Below, in pieces: positions 736 to 6,552 of a DNA stretch of 8,252 nt (within the stretch, counting starts at the first letter, position 1; the number at the start of each line of letters is the position of its first letter). This DNA is from DAOVGU01 sp030637775 [NCBI: bacterium] (lineage in GTDB: Bacteria > Ratteibacteria > UBA8468), in the NCBI GenBank assembly GCA_030637775.1, contig DAOWFY010000082.1:1-8252 (forward strand), read 5' to 3'. A model generated the notes under the pieces. It saw only the letters and a list, made by a program, of their open reading frames with translations, was not told where the DNA came from and made no database searches. A program made the position numbers and the translations under genes.

Positions 736-1940
736 CAAAAAGAAAGACCGTTTTAGAAAGGGAGATTGAGGCTCTCTCTCGGGTAAATAAGTTTATCGGC
801 TCGATCAGCAATTTGCATCGGCTTCTTGACCTGATTATGAAAGAGAGCAAGAGGATAATGAAGGCGGAGGCCAGTTCTCTGATGCTCTATGACCCCAAAA
901 GCAAAAAACTCTTCTTTGAGGTGGCCCTGGGAAAAAAGGGAAAGAAAGTAAAAAAGATAAGGTTAAAAGTGGGACAGGGGATTGCGGGGACCGCAGCTAA
1001 AATGGACAAAGTGCTCAATATCCCTGATGTTACCAAAGATCCTCATTTCTACAAAGAGGCAGATAGTAGAAGTGGGTTTAAAACTAAATCTATTCTGACT
1101 GTCCCCCTGAAACGAAAGGGTAAGTTGTTAGGTGTGCTTGAGGTATTGAATAAGAAGAATGGAAGGCCATTTGATAAGCAGGATGTCAGATTAATTCAGA
1201 TTATTGCTGGTCAGGCCGCAGTGGCGATTGAAAATGCTCAGTTATATCTCGCAAACCTCAGAGCAGAACGACTCGCTGCTGTCGGTCAGACGATCACCAG
1301 CCTCTCCCATTATATCAAAAACCTTTTGACCGGTATCGAGATGGGAAAGGAAACGGTTCATCTGGGTCTGGAAGATAGGGAGCAGGAAACCTTTGCCACA
1401 GGTTGGAGGATGGTAGATAAGAATATGGAGAAGGTTTCCAACCTGGTGCTCAATATGTTGAACTATTCCAAACCGCGTAAACCCCTGTATCAATTGGCAA
1501 ATCTCAATGAGATCGTAAAGCAGGTCGTTGCCTCTCAAGAGGAGCACGCAAAGAGAGAGAATGCCAGGTTGCTTACTAATCTGGACCATCATTTAGACCG
1601 GGTATTAATTGATACTTCAGGAATTGAGAGGGTCTTGCTAAATTTAGTGGGAAATAGCCTTGATGCCCTGAAAGGAAGAGGGGGGAAGGTAGAAATAACG
1701 ACCCATTTAGAGAAGAAAAAGAAACTCTTTCGGATTATCGTTAGCGATACGGGTTGCGGTATCCCCAAAGAGCAGATTAAGGAAATCTTTAATTTCTTTT
1801 ATAGCACAAAGGGGTCTAAAGGCACAGGCATTGGGCTGGCGGTGACGGAAAAGATTGTAAAGGAACAGAAAGGGAAGATTAAGGTTACATCAGAAGTAGG
1901 GAAGGGGACGACCTTTACCATTACCCTCCCTTGGCATTAA
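732..1940 (+). CDS. Cytosolic GAF-domain sensor histidine kinase
   Basis: This 402-residue protein has no signal peptide or membrane segment, so it should sense a cytoplasmic cue. A GAF domain spans about residues 20-170. It is followed by a short helical linker and a dimerisation/phosphoacceptor helix with the H-box SLSHYIKNLL (His193). The ATPase part has an N-box at ERVLLNLVGNSLDAL (Asn308), a G1 box SDTGCGIP (about 338-345), an F-box-like NFFYSTK and a G2 box GTGIGLA (364-370). All catalytic boxes are present, so the kinase should autophosphorylate. The start overlaps the stop of the upstream transglutaminase-like gene (ATGA) and no Shine-Dalgarno site is visible, which favours coupled translation. 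No receiver is fused. The nearest candidate partner is the single-domain response regulator encoded convergently at 2954-3361. The GAF ligand is unknown. Confidence 0.93.
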   Translation: MTKRKTVLEREIEALSRVNKFIGSISNLHRLLDLIMKESKRIMKAEASSLMLYDPKSKKLFFEVALGKKGKKVKKIRLKVGQGIAGTAAKMDKVLNIPDVTKDPHFYKEADSRSGFKTKSILTVPLKRKGKLLGVLEVLNKKNGRPFDKQDVRLIQIIAGQAAVAIENAQLYLANLRAERLAAVGQTITSLSHYIKNLLTGIEMGKETVHLGLEDREQETFATGWRMVDKNMEKVSNLVLNMLNYSKPRKPLYQLANLNEIVKQVVASQEEHAKRENARLLTNLDHHLDRVLIDTSGIERVLLNLVGNSLDALKGRGGKVEITTHLEKKKKLFRIIVSDTGCGIPKEQIKEIFNFFYSTKGSKGTGIGLAVTEKIVKEQKGKIKVTSEVGKGTTFTITLPWH

Positions 1941-1960
1941 GGGGTCAGACCTCTACATTT
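1940..1960 (-). repeat. Left REP-type terminal inverted repeat
   Basis: This 21-bp sequence is the exact reverse complement of 2930-2950. Its minus strand reads GTAG, one base, then the imperfect palindrome GGTCTGACC. With one mismatch the identity continues 4 bp inward, to about 1964. Its first base is the last base of the kinase stop codon TAA (1938-1940). Confidence 0.9.
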
Positions 1961-2000
1961 TACATTTTTCTTCTCTTAGCAGTTTAAATTTTATTTACCG

Positions 2001-2945
2001 ATGGCAAGACCTCTAAGAATTTCGTATGCTGGGGCTCTGTATCACATTATTTCTCGTGGTAACGAGACAAGAGAAATTTTTATAGATAAAAGAGATCGAG
2101 GGAAATTTCTTCAGTGTTTGAAAGAGATAATCCTCCGTTATAATGTAAAGATCCATACTTACTGTCTGATGGACAATCATTACCATCTAATTATGGAGAC
2201 ACCTCACGGAAATATTGTTGATGCCATGCATTATCTCAATTCCAGTTATACCGTTTACTTCAATTCTCTACATAAGAGGATTGGGCATCTTTTCCAAGGA
2301 AGATACAAATCCCTTCTTGTAGAAAAGGATCCATATCTGCCTGCTTTATCCCGTTATATCCATTTAAATCCAGTAAGAAAAAACTTAGTAAAAAATCCTC
2401 AAGATTATCCATGGTCAAGCTACAGGTATTTCATTACCCCGATAAATACACCCGATTTTCTTTGCACCGATTTTATTCTCTCCGTGTTTTCTGAAGATTT
2501 AGAAAAAGCCAGACATTTGTACCGAGAGTTTGTAGAGGACCATATTGGGGAGGAGGTGGAGGTTATCAGGGACAATTTGCATGCGGGTTTGATTGTAGGA
2601 AGCAGAAAGTTTGTGGAATGGGTGGGTAAAAACTTTTTGAAGGAGAAGAAGAAAGATAGGGAACTACCACAATTGCAAAAGCTCAAAGAGACTCCATCCA
2701 TAGAAGAAATTGAGAGGCTGGTAAAGGAGAATGTTGAGAGAAGTAAAATGCAGAGAAAATTAACCATATACTTAGTAAGGAAATTTACCAACAAAAAACT
2801 CCGCCAGATAGCTGAACACTTTGGGAATTTAACTGATATAGGGGTGAGTCAAATCTTTAGGAGAGTGGAGAAAAGAAGAAAAGAGGAGAGAGATTTTGAT
2901 TCGATCATTAAAGAGTTGGAAGATTTGTTAAATGTAGAGGTCTGA
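2001..2945 (+). CDS. REP-associated tyrosine transposase (RAYT, Y1/HUH family)
   Basis: This 314-residue protein has the classic RAYT N-terminus (MARPLRISYAGALYHIISRG). The metal-binding HUH-type motif appears as MDNHYHLI (His60, His62). GHLFQGRYKSLLVEKD follows, then SRYIHLNPVR, where Tyr119 is the best candidate for the catalytic tyrosine, and YPWSSYRYF. Such enzymes cut and rejoin single-stranded DNA at REP palindromes. The C-terminal part (about 250-290, KLRQIAEHF...GVSQIFRRVEKR) looks like a DnaA-type helix-turn-helix, as in the longer RAYT proteins, and may bind DNA. The start is fixed by the conserved N-terminus even though no Shine-Dalgarno site or clear promoter precedes it, so expression is likely low. 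The reading frame is intact with no missing catalytic residue. Confidence 0.92.
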   Translation: MARPLRISYAGALYHIISRGNETREIFIDKRDRGKFLQCLKEIILRYNVKIHTYCLMDNHYHLIMETPHGNIVDAMHYLNSSYTVYFNSLHKRIGHLFQGRYKSLLVEKDPYLPALSRYIHLNPVRKNLVKNPQDYPWSSYRYFITPINTPDFLCTDFILSVFSEDLEKARHLYREFVEDHIGEEVEVIRDNLHAGLIVGSRKFVEWVGKNFLKEKKKDRELPQLQKLKETPSIEEIERLVKENVERSKMQRKLTIYLVRKFTNKKLRQIAEHFGNLTDIGVSQIFRRVEKRRKEERDFDSIIKELEDLLNVEV

Positions 2946-2950
2946 CCCCT
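2930..2950 (+). repeat. Right REP-type terminal inverted repeat
   Basis: This is the exact inverted copy of 1940-1960, with GTAG at 2934-2937 and GGTCTGACC at 2939-2947. The last four sense codons (N-V-E-V) and the TGA stop of the transposase gene (2943-2945) are encoded inside it, so the repeat is partly coding. It ends 3 bp before the stop codon of the convergent receiver gene. Confidence 0.9.
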
Positions 2951-2953
2951 AAA

Positions 2954-3361
2954 CTAAATCTTAAAGCGCCGCGATTTCTCTTCCTCAATGGATTGGAACA
3001 CCATCTTGATTCCATCCAAAACCTCGGCAATCCTGAATGGCTTGGAAATATAGTAGTTGGCGCCATATTTATAGCCTTTGAGCATATCTTCGTCCCCTGC
3101 TCTGGCAGTGAGCATAATTACCGGTAAGGAGGCGGTCTGAGGATCTCCTTTAATCCTTTGAAGAACCTCAATTCCATCGAGCTTTGGCATTATAATATCA
3201 AGGATCACCAGAGCGGGATGAGAATCCTTCACTCTCTCCAATGCCTGCTCCCCATCGGTAGCACTGACCACATCAAAACCCTGACGTCGAATTGCCTTAC
3301 TTAAGGTTTTCACCACATCTGGTTCGTCATCTACCACCAAGATTCTCTTTTGGGTTGGCAT
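2954..3361 (-). CDS. Single-domain response regulator (CheY-like receiver)
   Basis: This 135-residue protein is a receiver domain with no output domain. It has the acidic pair Asp11/Asp12 (VVDDE), the phosphoacceptor Asp55 (VILDIIMPKLDG), Thr85 (MLTARAG) and Lys107 (ISKPF), so it should accept phosphate. After the receiver there is only a short charged tail ending SRRFKI. It probably acts by protein-protein contact or as a phosphorelay intermediate. The start is supported by AAGGAGA about 5 bp upstream on the minus strand and by a good promoter at 3392-3421. It ends 3 bp from the right REP repeat and is convergent with the GAF kinase, which is the likely but unproven partner. It diverges from the endonuclease Q gene. 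Confidence 0.93.
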   Translation of the reverse strand: MPTQKRILVVDDEPDVVKTLSKAIRRQGFDVVSATDGEQALERVKDSHPALVILDIIMPKLDGIEVLQRIKGDPQTASLPVIMLTARAGDEDMLKGYKYGANYYISKPFRIAEVLDGIKMVFQSIEEEKSRRFKI

Positions 3362-3365
3362 CTCT

Positions 3366-3372
3366 TCTCCTT
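3366..3372 (-). promoter_or_regulatory. Ribosome binding site of the receiver gene
   Basis: The minus strand reads AAGGAGA about 4-5 bp before the ATG at 3361, a near-ideal Shine-Dalgarno site that fixes this start. Confidence 0.75.
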
Positions 3373-3391
3373 ATCTGCTAAGGTACAATTA

Positions 3392-3421
3392 ATTTTAATC
3401 TATTTTTCCTCTTTCTGTCAA
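3392..3421 (-). promoter_or_regulatory. Predicted sigma70-type promoter of the receiver gene
   Basis: Reading the minus strand, TTGACA (3421-3416, perfect -35) is followed after 18 bp by TAAAAT (3397-3392, five of six to TATAAT). The predicted transcript starts near 3385 and has a leader of about 24 nt containing the ribosome site. The -35 lies 6 bp from the -10 of the divergent promoter for the endonuclease Q gene. Confidence 0.65.
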
Positions 3422-3424
3422 TTA

Positions 3425-3433
3425 TGGTATAAT
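3425..3433 (+). promoter_or_regulatory. Predicted extended -10 promoter of the endonuclease Q gene
   Basis: TGGTATAAT is a perfect -10 hexamer (3428-3433) with the TGN extension. The -35 position (3405-3410, TTTCCT) is poor, as is usual for extended -10 promoters. The predicted start point, near 3440, is only about 4 nt before the ATG at 3444, so the message would be nearly leaderless. Confidence 0.6.
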
Positions 3434-3443
3434 AATCAAACCT

Positions 3444-4664
3444 ATGGCTTTTATCTGCGACTTTCACCTCCACACCAAGTATTCCCGCGCAACATCTTCG
3501 GATATGGATTTGGAAAATCTTTCCCTCTGGGCAAAGAGAAAGGGGGTCAGTCTTTTGGGCACGGGAGACTTCACCCATCCCATCTGGTTTGAGGAGTTAA
3601 AGAGAAAGCTAAGGCCAAAGGATGAAGGAATCTATGAATATAATGGGGTTAGATTTATTCTTACTACCGAGGTCTGCAATATCTTTGCCAAAAGGGGGAA
3701 GATCAAGAAGATTCACAACGTGATCTTTCTTCCCTCTTTGGAAAAGGTCATTAAATTAAATGAAAAATTGGAAAGATTTGGGGAATTGGGAGCCGATGGC
3801 CGACCGATTCTTCAGTTAGAAGCAAAGGATCTGGTAAAGCTTGTAAAGGATACCGATAGCGCTGGTTTTGTTGTCCCCGCCCATATCTGGACCCCCCATT
3901 TCTCCCTCTTTGGAGCCAATTCTGGATTTGATGATATTTCTGAATGTTACGGGGAGGAAACAGAAAATATCTTTGCTCTGGAGACCGGGCTTTCCAGTGA
4001 TCCTCCGATGAACTGGCGGCTCTCCGCCCTGGACTCCTTTACCCTTATCTCTAACTCCGATGCCCACTCCCCTGGTCGAATTGGTCGGGAGGCGAATGTC
4101 TTTAAAGAGCCTCTTAATTATCCGGAGATAGTGGAGGTCCTTAAAAGGAAGGATAAGGAAAAATTTCTCTATACCATTGAGTATTTTCCCGAGGAAGGAA
4201 AATACCATTTTGATGGTCACCGGAATTGCCAAGCTTGCCTTTCTCCCGATGAGGCAAAGAGCAATGAAAATCGCTGTCCCATCTGCGGAAGAAAAGTTAC
4301 GGTTGGTGTGATGCACAGGATAGTTGACCTGGCCGATAGAGAAAAAGGGTTCATTCCTGAGTCCGTCATCGGTTGCAAGCATCTTATCCCTCTGGAGCAG
4401 ATTATTGGCTCTGCTTTAAAAAAGGGGGTCTCCTCGGAGACGGTTCAGAGCCAATATTTACAGATTGTTAATCAAGTGGGCAGCGAATTCAGCGTGCTTT
4501 TGGAAATCCCCGAGGATGAGCTTAAGAAGAGCATTCCTTACCAGATCGCTGAAGCGATCATCAAGGTGAGGCAGGAAAAAGTAAATCTTTCCCCGGGGTA
4601 CGATGGGGAATACGGGAAAATTGAAATTCCTTTAGGCGAAGAGCAACAGCAGACATTGTTCTAA
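3444..4664 (+). CDS. Endonuclease Q (PHP-domain DNA repair endonuclease)
   Basis: This 406-residue protein has the full architecture of the EndoQ family, which nicks DNA 5' of deaminated bases (hypoxanthine, uracil, xanthine) and abasic sites. The PHP metal-binding residues are visible: DFHLHT (His8, His10), GTGDFTHP (Asp42, His45), Glu76 in TTEVCN, His147 in VPAHIWTPH, and SNSDAHSPGRIGREA (Asp206, His208). A C4 zinc site follows (Cys262-x2-Cys265 and Cys278-x2-Cys281, CPICGR), then a mostly helical C-terminal region. Length is typical. The last residues are QQQTLF, resembling a bacterial sliding-clamp binding motif. The start is set by the PHP motif, which begins at residue 6. No Shine-Dalgarno site precedes it, in keeping with a leaderless transcript. 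The family is best known from Thermococcales and methanogens and occurs in a scattered set of bacteria. Confidence 0.9.
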   Translation: MAFICDFHLHTKYSRATSSDMDLENLSLWAKRKGVSLLGTGDFTHPIWFEELKRKLRPKDEGIYEYNGVRFILTTEVCNIFAKRGKIKKIHNVIFLPSLEKVIKLNEKLERFGELGADGRPILQLEAKDLVKLVKDTDSAGFVVPAHIWTPHFSLFGANSGFDDISECYGEETENIFALETGLSSDPPMNWRLSALDSFTLISNSDAHSPGRIGREANVFKEPLNYPEIVEVLKRKDKEKFLYTIEYFPEEGKYHFDGHRNCQACLSPDEAKSNENRCPICGRKVTVGVMHRIVDLADREKGFIPESVIGCKHLIPLEQIIGSALKKGVSSETVQSQYLQIVNQVGSEFSVLLEIPEDELKKSIPYQIAEAIIKVRQEKVNLSPGYDGEYGKIEIPLGEEQQQTLF

Positions 4665-4736
4665 AAATGAAAAAGCTTCAACAACTTTTGCCTATTGCAT
4701 AGAGACTGAGTTAAGACCTTTAGTACCAAAAGAAAT

Positions 4737-5012: not shown

Positions 5013-5137
5013 GATCCAGGAATCGCTAAAATACCGGATTTTCCCGAAATCCCCGAAAACCATCTCTATATTTGCGCTTTAAGAAGTTTTCTTAAAGCGA
5101 GAAAGGTATAGATTTAGAGGACCGCAAAACAGCAGTA
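5013..5137 (+). repeat. Direct repeat, copy 1 (flanks Shedu gene upstream)
   Basis: This segment aligns with 6409-6552 in the same orientation, from GATCC through GGAATCGCT, GAAAACC, CATTTGCG-type and TTTAGAGGACC blocks. There are two single-base indels and one 18-for-1 replacement. Identity is about 80% in the best part, and nearly all differences there are transitions. It lies 143 bp before the Shedu-like start codon. Confidence 0.75.
5075..5099 (+). repeat. Perfect 11-bp inverted repeat with 3-base loop
   Basis: CGCTTTAAGAA (5075-5085), loop GTT, then TTCTTAAAGCG (5089-5099): a perfect stem of 11 pairs inside remnant copy 1. No T-run follows, so it is not a standard intrinsic terminator. 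The matching place in copy 2 (6472-6496) pairs only in part. Confidence 0.7.
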
Positions 5138-5188
5138 AAATTCAGGGAGTATCAGGAAGAGATGTTTGAGGATACGGAGAGGATGTAG

Positions 5189-5280
5189 GAAAATAATTAT
5201 AAGAGTTGTGCATGAACGGAGTAGTTCAGTTATTTTTAGCTATGTGAAATTGTGCCCCAGCATAATTTAGAGCATCATTA
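5189..5280 (+). other. AT-rich spacer before the Shedu-like gene
   Basis: No coding frame, hairpin or strong promoter is visible in these 92 bases. CATAAT at 5261-5266 could serve as a weak -10, but no -35 is placed for it. The Shedu-like gene also lacks a good Shine-Dalgarno site. Confidence 0.4.
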
Positions 5281-6333
5281 ATGATAAATTTTAAGAACAC
5301 TATTTTAGAGTATTTCAAGACACTTGATTCATCTTTAGAAAAGTTTTCCATTAAAAGTGAAGGCAATATCACAAGGCTGCCCCTGTGGACCCTCACTCAT
5401 AGAGAAATATGTTTAGGTCTCAATGAAAGTAAGAGTTTTTTGATAATAAAGGTCATTCCTAACGATAAATTACAAAAGGATAGAATAGTAGAGAAAAAAA
5501 TGACTTCTCAAGAAGATGTGGCTGGAATTCTAAGTCCATTAGAAGCTGATTTTTCAATAAATAAATTGCCGAAAAATAACTTTGTGATGTTTGAAGGTAT
5601 AACTGTTACAGAAGCAAATAATCCCCTTGCAAAACCTGTTATGGAATTTCCAGGCGTCATCGGGTGGGGTAATTTAGAAAGTGCATTGAATTCTTTCAGT
5701 GTAATTGAAGCAAAAAAGGGGGCAATCAATTTATGGAATAATGCTTTGCATAATAGACCAAGAACGGAATCATTCATTCACGAAACACGACTTGTTTTTA
5801 CTAAGTTTAGCCTTTTGATGAAAAGAAAGGCATTTTTGGAAAGAAAAATCCATCGATTTATTAACGCACATCGGGATATCTTACTTCCAAATTTCAAAAA
5901 TTGCTTTTTTGAGATTAAGCTAAAGTTAGGCAAGGAATTTAGGAAGGCAGACTTTATAATTGAAAGAGAAGAGGGCATACCGGCCCTTTTAATAGAACTC
6001 GAAAACCCTTCTTATAGAATGTTTAGAAAAGATGGAGAATTGACCGCTGAAGCAAACCATGCACGGAGCCAAATAGCAGAATGGGTTAGATTTATTGAAC
6101 AAAACCCTCAAATAAATGCAAGTGGGCCATTATACTTCTTGAATGGTCGTAAAGACAGACTTGTAATTATGGGGCGGGGATTAAATAACAGAAAAAAGAT
6201 GATTGATTCGAAATATACCGACACGACTATGTGGACTTATAACTTATTTCTAGAACAAGCGAAGAGTAAATGGAATGATATTATTAATAACCAATGCCAA
6301 ACTATTGGCATAGAGAGAATAACTCCTTTTTAG
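5281..6333 (+). CDS. Shedu-like (DUF4263) anti-phage nuclease-family protein
   Basis: This 350-residue protein has the C-terminal signature of the Shedu/DUF4263 family, single-gene anti-phage systems with a PD-(D/E)XK nuclease fold. Asp224 lies in RKADFIIERE, Glu239-Leu-Glu241 in ALLIELENPSYRMF, and Gln264 in EANHARSQIAEWVRFI. The order D...E-x-E/K...Q is that of the family. The position usually held by lysine is Glu241, as in a subset of family members that read IE-x-E-x-P. The N-terminal 190 residues are unlike anything I can name and may be the variable sensing part of Shedu proteins. There is no membrane segment. Upstream and downstream lie two remnants of one lost gene, and codon use is more AT-rich than in the first half of the window; both suggest acquisition. 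The start is the first ATG of the frame, with a weak ribosome site. The family assignment rests on motifs read by eye. Confidence 0.72.
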   Translation: MINFKNTILEYFKTLDSSLEKFSIKSEGNITRLPLWTLTHREICLGLNESKSFLIIKVIPNDKLQKDRIVEKKMTSQEDVAGILSPLEADFSINKLPKNNFVMFEGITVTEANNPLAKPVMEFPGVIGWGNLESALNSFSVIEAKKGAINLWNNALHNRPRTESFIHETRLVFTKFSLLMKRKAFLERKIHRFINAHRDILLPNFKNCFFEIKLKLGKEFRKADFIIEREEGIPALLIELENPSYRMFRKDGELTAEANHARSQIAEWVRFIEQNPQINASGPLYFLNGRKDRLVIMGRGLNNRKKMIDSKYTDTTMWTYNLFLEQAKSKWNDIINNQCQTIGIERITPF

Positions 6334-6408: not shown

Positions 6409-6552
6409 GATCCCGGGAATCGCTAGATCCTGTATTTCCCCGCAAATCCCTGAAAACCGCCTCTACATTTGCGTTTTAAGAGGTTTTCCCAAAGTAAGGA
6501 AGGGTATAGCACCCCTGAAATCAGGGGTTTAGAGGACCACAAGGCAGCGGTA
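6409..6552 (+). repeat. Direct repeat, copy 2 (flanks Shedu gene downstream)
   Basis: This is the same-orientation counterpart of 5013-5137, differing by scattered transitions, two single-base indels and an 18-base palindromic segment at 6510-6527. It lies 13 bp before the start of the zinc-ribbon gene. Confidence 0.75.
6511..6528 (+). repeat. 8-bp perfect hairpin inserted in repeat copy 2
   Basis: ACCCCTGA, two bases, TCAGGGGT form a perfect stem. Copy 1 has a single A (5112) where copy 2 has the 18 bases 6510-6527, while the bases on either side align. The palindrome was therefore gained in copy 2 or lost from copy 1. Confidence 0.65.

What the first reader, a model, noticed from the sequence alone, without database searches (positions are those of the whole stretch)
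1940..2950. RAYT gene bounded by perfect 21-bp inverted REPs, with the right REP coding for the transposase C-terminus
Each 21-bp repeat has the GTAG-plus-palindrome plan of REP sequences, and the two face each other across the transposase gene. The right copy contains the transposase's last codons and stop, so a cleavage site and protein-coding DNA are the same bases. A perfect match over 21 bp argues for recent activity or strong constraint, since the enzyme must recognise the repeat and the repeat must still encode N-V-E-V-stop.
Basis: partly seen in the sequence, partly recalled or inferred. Interest (0 to 1): 0.6.

Follow-up and report, generated by a model that had tools for sequence, protein, structure and literature searches.

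The report
Jumping gene with shared-duty end repeats
The gene is a small bacterial jumping gene whose right-hand end repeat also spells the last four amino acids and the stop of the enzyme thought to move it; it belongs to a described but little studied kind, and its absence from the same spot in two related genomes suggests that it moved in after those lineages split.

Summary
Perfect 21-bp inverted repeats at 1940-1960 and 2930-2950 flank a tyrosine (HUH, Y1) transposase gene (2001-2945), and the right one encodes N-V-E-V-stop. The label needs correcting: this is a TIRYT/TIRtron (Di Nocera 2013; Quentin 2018 subclass 2.1), not a GTAG-type REPtron. The repeat carries the TIRtron motif GGGGWSAS, its hairpin potential is no better than shuffled sequence, and the sister family in the same genome has GTTG. 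The genome holds 6 exact copies plus 44 of the sister family; 30 of the 48 outside the window are in facing pairs. A second TIRYT is flanked by the sister repeat and also stops inside it. Of 90 related ORFs (window's included), 77 have flanking inverted repeats; in 42 of these 77 the stop codon lies inside the right repeat. Orthologous sites in a same-genus and a same-family genome lack the element, so it probably inserted in this lineage. Not seen described in what I read, and by computation only: left repeats are enriched for a TTGACA promoter box (not the window's own), and often contain a tandem ~7-bp unit, more often when the enzyme has a DnaA-like C-terminal domain. Ordinary in kind, useful in detail.

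The parts
1940..1960 (+). left terminal inverted repeat (type A), perfect 21 bp; similarity continues with a mismatch to about 1964; base 1940 is also the last base of the upstream kinase gene's stop codon
   Evidence: motif GGGGTCAG fits GGGGWSAS of Di Nocera 2013
1954..1968 (+). tandem 7-bp unit in the left end (TACATTTTACATTTT), shuffle p = 0.007
2001..2945 (+). TIRYT: HUH/Y1 transposase core followed by a DnaA-domain-IV-like helix-turn-helix domain, 314 aa
   Evidence: model of mean pLDDT 88.4 matching TnpAREP 4er8 and DnaA DNA-binding domains 3pvp and 1j1v
2931..2945 (+). codons N-V-E-V and stop TGA lying inside the right repeat
   Evidence: sequence; residues 312-314 pLDDT below 50
2930..2950 (-). 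right terminal inverted repeat (type A), perfect 21 bp
1941..2949 (.). whole element (TIRtron A; edges uncertain by a base or two), absent from the orthologous site in G001 (7 other bases between the matches) and in G002 (21 other bases)

Best explanation
The feature is a complete TIRtron: a Y1 transposase gene of the TIRYT type (subclass 2.1) with near-perfect terminal inverted repeats at its outer edges. Shown here: the repeats, their dispersal as single copies and facing pairs, a second TIRYT with its own repeat family, overlap of the right repeat with the last codons in both, and absence of the element from the same place in two relatives. Inferred: the enzyme recognises its own repeat (the DnaA-like domain may read the inner tandem units, the HUH core cuts near the outer GGGGTCA), moves the whole element or short non-autonomous pairs, probably as single-stranded DNA, and the two arms stay identical because both are read as DNA. 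The enzyme's end can lie in the right arm because its last residues are disordered; in many relatives the left arm also carries a -35 box, so the ends would serve recognition, expression and translation stop together.
For: Repeats. Repeat family: 50 sites within 3 mismatches in the own genome, reversed control 0; 15 facing pairs under 260 bp among the 48 sites outside the window. Second TIRYT, 56% identical, stops in its own repeat in the same frame. Relatives: 77 of 90 distinct ORFs have arms scoring 14 or more, while 714 pairings of one locus's upstream stretch with another's downstream stretch, in direct orientation, never exceeded 13. Stop wholly inside the right arm in 42 of 77; TGA is the stop in 28 of these 42, 18 of them matching my rule for the head TGACCCC, plus L066 with TGACCCT. 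Arm mismatches in coding bases 3 of 154, 7 of 173 and 3 of 185 at codon positions 1, 2 and 3; the arms were picked for identity, so only the lack of a third-position excess counts. Empty sites. A mini-pair (L058) is absent from the G001 site. TTGACA in 28 of 77 left ends, shuffled mean 0.88. Tandem unit: 22 of 77 at p<0.05 against 9 of 231 coding controls and 4 of 75 outer flanks. Fold.
Against: No transposition was observed; the empty sites rest on two relatives and could be excisions. No target-site duplication is consistent across the sites. 13 of 90 ORFs showed no arms, among them the Firmicutes and Omnitrophica loci L117, L123, L124 and L127. The same-locus direct-orientation control also reached score 14 in 15 of 90 loci, so part of the signal is local repetitiveness. 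Where several arm pairs scored within 2 of the best, my script took the one nearest the stop, which favours overlap somewhat. The window's own left end has only a weak -35 (TTTACA), and its promoter scan is not above shuffles. The loci are related: at 50% identity 44 clusters, 35 with arms, 18 with a stop in the arm, 13 with TTGACA; with single linkage at 40% only 12 clusters, 9, 4 and 1. PF08299 scored below its cut-off (22.1 of 31.5 bits). TIRtron B sits at one orthologous place in G000 and G001, which shows vertical inheritance rather than movement for that copy.
Confidence: 0.85

Rival explanations
1. It is a classical REPtron: a RAYT flanked by GTAG-tagged hairpin REPs.
For: The repeat contains GTAG followed by a short palindrome-like stretch; RAYT genes are flanked by inverted REPs (Nunvar 2010, abstract and passages); NF047646 scores 75.2 against a cut-off of 80; nearest solved fold is TnpAREP 4er8.
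Against: Hairpin not above shuffles; sister family GTTG with broken palindrome, a change that abolished cleavage by the S. maltophilia enzyme (passages of PMC8266576); protein motifs NHYH, FQ, YIHLNP and a DnaA-like domain are those of subclass 2.1, for which Quentin 2018 found no REPs.
Confidence: 0.07
2. A domesticated, immobile gene whose flanking repeats are kept for some host function; the other genome copies are relics.
For: Class 2 genes have low copy number within genomes, subclass 2.3 excepted (Quentin 2018); TIRtron B is at the same place in two species.
Against: TIRtron A is absent from the colinear site in G001 and in G002; a mini-pair is present in G000 and absent in G001; many copies are identical over 20-25 bp.
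Confidence: 0.12
3. On the overlap alone (compatible with the best explanation): the overlap of repeat and stop is only compaction; the repeat happens to abut a short gene, with no selection for the overlap.
For: The right arm lies just downstream of the stop in several relatives (for example L069, L082, L099); any of the three stops is used; the tail is disordered.
Against: Stop inside the arm in 42 of 77 loci and in 18 of 35 clusters with arms, with the same head TGA used in loci from several phyla.
Confidence: 0.5

Closest known systems
TIRYT / TIRtron (Di Nocera, De Gregorio, Rocco 2013, PMC3733652)
   Same: Y1 transposase gene between long terminal inverted repeats with GGGGWSAS; repeats in single and paired copies; 3' overlap with the gene is already provided for ('3'ov') in the legends of Figures 8 and 9.
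   Different: The -35 box, the tandem 7-bp unit and empty sites are not in the parts that I read (abstract, section 16, section 17 part 1, passages).
TnpAY1 subclass 2.1 / Bertels group 1 (Quentin 2018, PMC6006769)
   Same: NH[YF]H, FQ, Y[IV]HLNP motifs and Bac_DnaA_C-like C-terminal domain.
   Different: They found no REP-like sequences near these genes, and noted that GGGGWSAS does not resemble a DnaA box; inner tandem units are not discussed in the parts that I read.
RAYT / REPtron with GTAG REPs (Nunvar 2010; TnpAREP)
   Same: HUH/Y1 core, inverted flanking repeats, non-autonomous pairs (REPINs).
   Different: GTAG at the foot of a hairpin is lacking as a conserved feature; the ends here are plain inverted repeats.
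IS200/IS605
   Same: Catalytic fold.
   Different: Y motif ends NP; none of the 8 window ORFs scanned matched a TnpB family; ends are mirror copies rather than two different subterminal hairpins.

Membership tests
TIRYT / TIRtron (subclass 2.1) | long terminal inverted repeats at both sides of the gene | tested here: met
TIRYT / TIRtron (subclass 2.1) | GGGGWSAS motif in the repeat | tested here: met
   GGGGTCAG; the motif is in 32 of 77 left arms (window included), 1 of 77 on the other strand
TIRYT / TIRtron (subclass 2.1) | NH[YF]H, FQ and Y[IV]HLNP motifs | tested here: met
   NHYH, LFQGRYKS, YIHLNP in the window protein, against Table 1 of PMC6006769
TIRYT / TIRtron (subclass 2.1) | DnaA-type helix-turn-helix domain at the C-terminus | tested here: met
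   fold match to 3pvp and 1j1v, TMt 0.73 and 0.75, E 0.021 and 0.025; PF08299 E 1.5e-4 but below the curated cut-off
TIRYT / TIRtron (subclass 2.1) | repeat family elsewhere in the genome, singly or paired | tested here: met
RAYT / REPtron | HUH/Y1 transposase core | tested here: met
RAYT / REPtron | repeat folds as a hairpin | tested here: not met
   window p = 0.24 and 0.59; 9 and 10 of 77 arms at p<=0.05 on the two strands, coding control 4 of 77
RAYT / REPtron | GT[AG]G at the hairpin foot, kept in the family | tested here: not met
   GTAG letters in type A, GTTG in type B; 5 of 77 against reversed control 7 of 77
RAYT / REPtron | cutting of single-stranded REP by the enzyme | not testable with these tools
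   needs biochemistry
IS200/IS605 | different subterminal hairpins at the two ends | tested here: not met
   ends are mirror copies, hairpin not above chance

The most novel reading that the evidence does not exclude
TIRtrons are not hairpin-reading Y1 elements but Y1 elements that read plain inverted repeats: a DnaA-derived C-terminal domain binds two tandem ~7-bp boxes inside each arm while the HUH core cuts at the GGGGTCA edge. The left arm supplies the -35 box, so that the enzyme would repress itself by binding its own end, and the right arm supplies the stop codon. One short repeat is then recognition site, promoter and stop signal, and a new box sequence changes all three at once.
Probability: 0.3. 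Interest if true: 0.62.

Novelty: new member of a known kind. Interest (0 to 1): 0.42.

Why it matters
Genes of this kind with arms turned up here in named records labelled Nitrospirae, Aminicenantes, Uhrbacteria, Deltaproteobacteria, Opitutales and Gammaproteobacteria, yet the word TIRYT is in only two papers of the open-licence library searched. This case gives an empty site for a whole element with a second relative to polarise it, a two-family genome in which enzyme and repeat can be matched, and a testable model of how an enzyme of a single-stranded-DNA type could use ordinary inverted repeats.

Tried and rejected
GTAG-plus-hairpin REP: tested and rejected. Spread by phages or plasmids: little support; plasmids 24 records, 1 with at least 80% cover at 39% identity, phages 1 weak record, viral contigs no exact type A 20-mer. 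Frequent excision scars: the palindrome GGGGTCA-N-TGACCCC (0-12 bases between) occurs at only one place in G000 and nowhere in G001, so no rule can be drawn. Mini-pairs as deletion derivatives of TIRtron B: only 2 of 26 interiors (L034 and L061) share 29 and 42 bases with it, so not general. Promoter of the window's own gene: weak, not above shuffles. Target duplication: TAA stands at both sides of TIRtron A, but L182 and L058 show nothing alike; not claimed. A literature search for a stop within a right inverted repeat found no paper with all four terms; I recall from general knowledge, not from a call, that some other insertion sequences have their stop inside an end.

Rows dropped before counts: of 102 matching ORFs, 12 with identical first 250 residues were merged; near-duplicates such as L054/L064, L097/L098 and L100/L101 remain. 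Loci came from the 30 loci returned by the search of 99 relatives, 43 named loci, TIRtron B (L054) and 40 stretches that I chose, many from multi-copy genomes, so they are no random sample. One search repeated the tandem test with lags 6-9 instead of 5-12: 29 of 77 at p<0.05; 27 of 58 with and 2 of 19 without the C-terminal domain (Fisher p = 0.006, not corrected for kinship). That domain was called with a profile built in the script from 8 of these proteins and iterated on the same set (61 of 90 at E<=0.01), not with Pfam.

Full report
What is there. The window holds a perfect 21-bp inverted repeat at 1940-1960 and 2930-2950 around one gene, 2001-2945, for a 314-residue Y1 transposase. The element lies between a sensor kinase gene (732-1940), whose stop codon it abuts, and a convergent response-regulator gene (2954-3361, minus strand). 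The last four codons and the stop are inside the right repeat.

The repeat family. In the own genome (1.40 Mb in 177 contigs, 83.5% complete) 50 sites match the 20-mer within 3 mismatches, against 0 for the reversed control. Six are exact (type A: two at this gene, four elsewhere). The other 44 are a sister type B, GGGGTCAGGTCTCAACATTT, three of them with C in place of one A. Of the 48 sites outside the window, 30 form 15 facing pairs less than 260 bp apart and 18 do not, two of these 18 being the ends of a second transposase element; partners with more than 3 mismatches were not counted. Pairs such as L040, L049 and L058 are almost nothing but two arms (44-52 bp). Among 99 genomes, type A within 2 mismatches occurs in three: the own genome (6 sites), G058 (2) and G072 (5), all three of which also have matches to the transposase; the reversed control had single matches in two others, G007 and G028. 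The same-genus genome G001 has 58 sites within 3 mismatches of type B, no type A site, and only one full-length enzyme, the type B one. Enzyme and repeat type therefore go together in this small comparison.

The second gene. Contig C119 carries a 312-residue enzyme, 56% identical, between two type B repeats, and it too stops inside its right repeat: S-N-V-E-T-stop, in the same frame, with the TGA of TGACCCC. Its orthologue in G001 is in the same place.

How general. I collected 90 distinct related ORFs (the window's and TIRtron B's included) from unnamed and named genomes and looked for inverted arms between up to 500 bases upstream and the stretch from 90 bases before to 400 after the stop. 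77 of 90 have arms of score 14 or more and 13 do not; 714 pairings of different loci in direct orientation reached 13 at most; the same-locus direct-orientation control reached 14 in 15 of 90. The stop codon lies wholly in the right arm in 42 of 77 and the arm overlaps coding bases in 50 of 77; when several arm pairs scored alike the script took the one nearest the stop. Counted by clusters at 50% identity, 35 of 44 clusters have arms and 18 of these have at least one member with the stop in the arm; at 40% single linkage it is 9 of 12 clusters and 4. Within coding parts of the arms, mismatches to the left arm are as rare at third codon positions (3 of 185) as at first and second (3 of 154, 7 of 173), which points to constraint or copying at the DNA level rather than to a conserved peptide.

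Not a GTAG REP. Arms do not fold much better than shuffled sequence in general (9 and 10 of 77 at p<=0.05 on the two strands, coding control 4 of 77; medians 0.40 and 0.52; the window's own arm 0.24 and 0.59). A minority, such as L078, L148 and L092, do have strong hairpins. GTAG or GTGG occurs in 5 of 77 right arms, its reversed control in 7. From type A to type B two stem bases change without compensation and GTAG becomes GTTG.

What kind it is. Di Nocera and colleagues (PMC3733652; abstract, sections 16 and 17 part 1, and passages read) described RAYT-like genes flanked by long terminal inverted repeats and called them TIRYT genes and TIRtrons, with the motif GGGGWSAS, and their figure legends provide for repeats overlapping the gene's 3' end. 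Quentin and colleagues (PMC6006769; abstract, sections 12 and 15 part 1, and passages read) placed 20 of those 26 examples in subclass 2.1, with NH[YF]H, FQ, Y[IV]HLNP and a Bac_DnaA_C-like C-terminal domain. The window protein has these (PF08299 itself is below its cut-off), and the predicted structure (mean pLDDT 88.4) matches TnpAREP 4er8 (E 6.8e-8) and, far more weakly, the DnaA DNA-binding domains 3pvp and 1j1v (E 0.021 and 0.025; TMt 0.73 and 0.75). By sequence the DnaA chain 1j1v aligns to residues 237-301 (E 0.035).

Movement. In G001 the window's neighbours are colinear: 718-1930 at 91% and 2953-4666 at 90% identity, with seven bases in place of 1931-2952. In G002, of the same family, the same two genes are adjacent with 21 bases between the matches. 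The simplest reading is insertion in the lineage of the window. A 52-bp type B pair (L058) is likewise absent from the G001 site, whose flanks match at 90% and 83%. A 125-bp element of G001 (L182) is replaced in G000 by a 15-bp palindrome made of the outer bases of both arms, which looks like an internal deletion or an imperfect excision; it is the only such place. A third site that I compared (L010, contig C4) has other DNA in G001, so it is no clean empty site. Other orthologous sites carry arms in both species but different interiors (L047/L180, L038/L196, L061/L178, L020/L194).

Details that I have not seen described. First, TTGACA occurs in the first 50 bases of 28 of 77 left ends, against 0.88 on shuffling, 1 on the other strand, 2 in the outer flanks, and 2, 0, 0 and 0 of 77 in four coding controls; right ends read inward have it in 13 of 77. 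A -35/-10 pair lies between left arm and start in 34 of 77 against 5.15 expected, with the -35 starting inside the arm in 23. The window's own left end has only TTTACA, and by 40% clusters the TTGACA loci fall in one cluster. Second, the left ends hold a tandem unit: 22 of 77 at p<0.05 (14 of these 22 with period 7, 5 with 8), against 9 of 231 coding stretches and 4 of 75 outer flanks; with lags 6-9 it is 27 of 58 in genes with the C-terminal domain and 2 of 19 without. This fits, but does not prove, reading of the units by the DnaA-like domain. Searches for prior mention, seen as listings: in open-licence papers only, so subscription papers may hold it.

Mechanism, with its status. Shown: anatomy, repeat families, empty sites. 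Inferred: the enzyme reads its own arms and moves whole elements and arm pairs; arms stay identical because both are read as DNA; the last residues are free to be whatever the repeat spells, as residues 312-314 are predicted disordered. Unknown: strand and form of the DNA that is cut, target choice, and whether the left-arm promoter box is used.

Noticed in passing
window 5281-6333: ORF with a Shedu SduA C-terminal domain match (PF14082, E 2e-8), a possible anti-phage defence gene.
   Followed up: no
window 5110-5196 and 6427-6536: Short stretches that recur in several contigs of G001, G002 or G003: other dispersed repeat families of these genomes.
   Followed up: no
L226 6576-8484 (G000 contig C49): A 1.9-kb three-ORF cassette between a type B variant repeat and a facing type A repeat; G001 has other DNA between the same flanks.
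   Followed up: partly
G000 contig C161 7890-7904 (L236): A 15-bp perfect palindrome of arm outer bases where G001 has a 125-bp element; the only such place found in the two genomes.
   Followed up: yes
L047/L180, L038/L196, L061/L178, L020/L194: Orthologous sites in two species hold repeats with different interiors, as if the inside had been exchanged.
   Followed up: partly
L226 6285-6593; L054 1751-2317: Repeat copies appear to supply the first codons (M-W-R-P-D-P) of one neighbouring ORF and to lie in the C-terminal part (G-V-R-S-Q-H-L-T) of another; gene starts not verified.
   Followed up: no
G074 (loci L136-L149): One genome with 16 matches to the transposase; the 12 rows listed for it under L137-L149 all have arms, of differing sequence, so enzyme and repeat seem to diversify within one genome.
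   Followed up: partly
L004 406-483 and 1497-1618: Of 42 matches of this stretch in G001, 19 fall on the first part and 21 on the interior of the pair at the type A copy: more widespread repeat families, or pairs with decayed arms.
   Followed up: no
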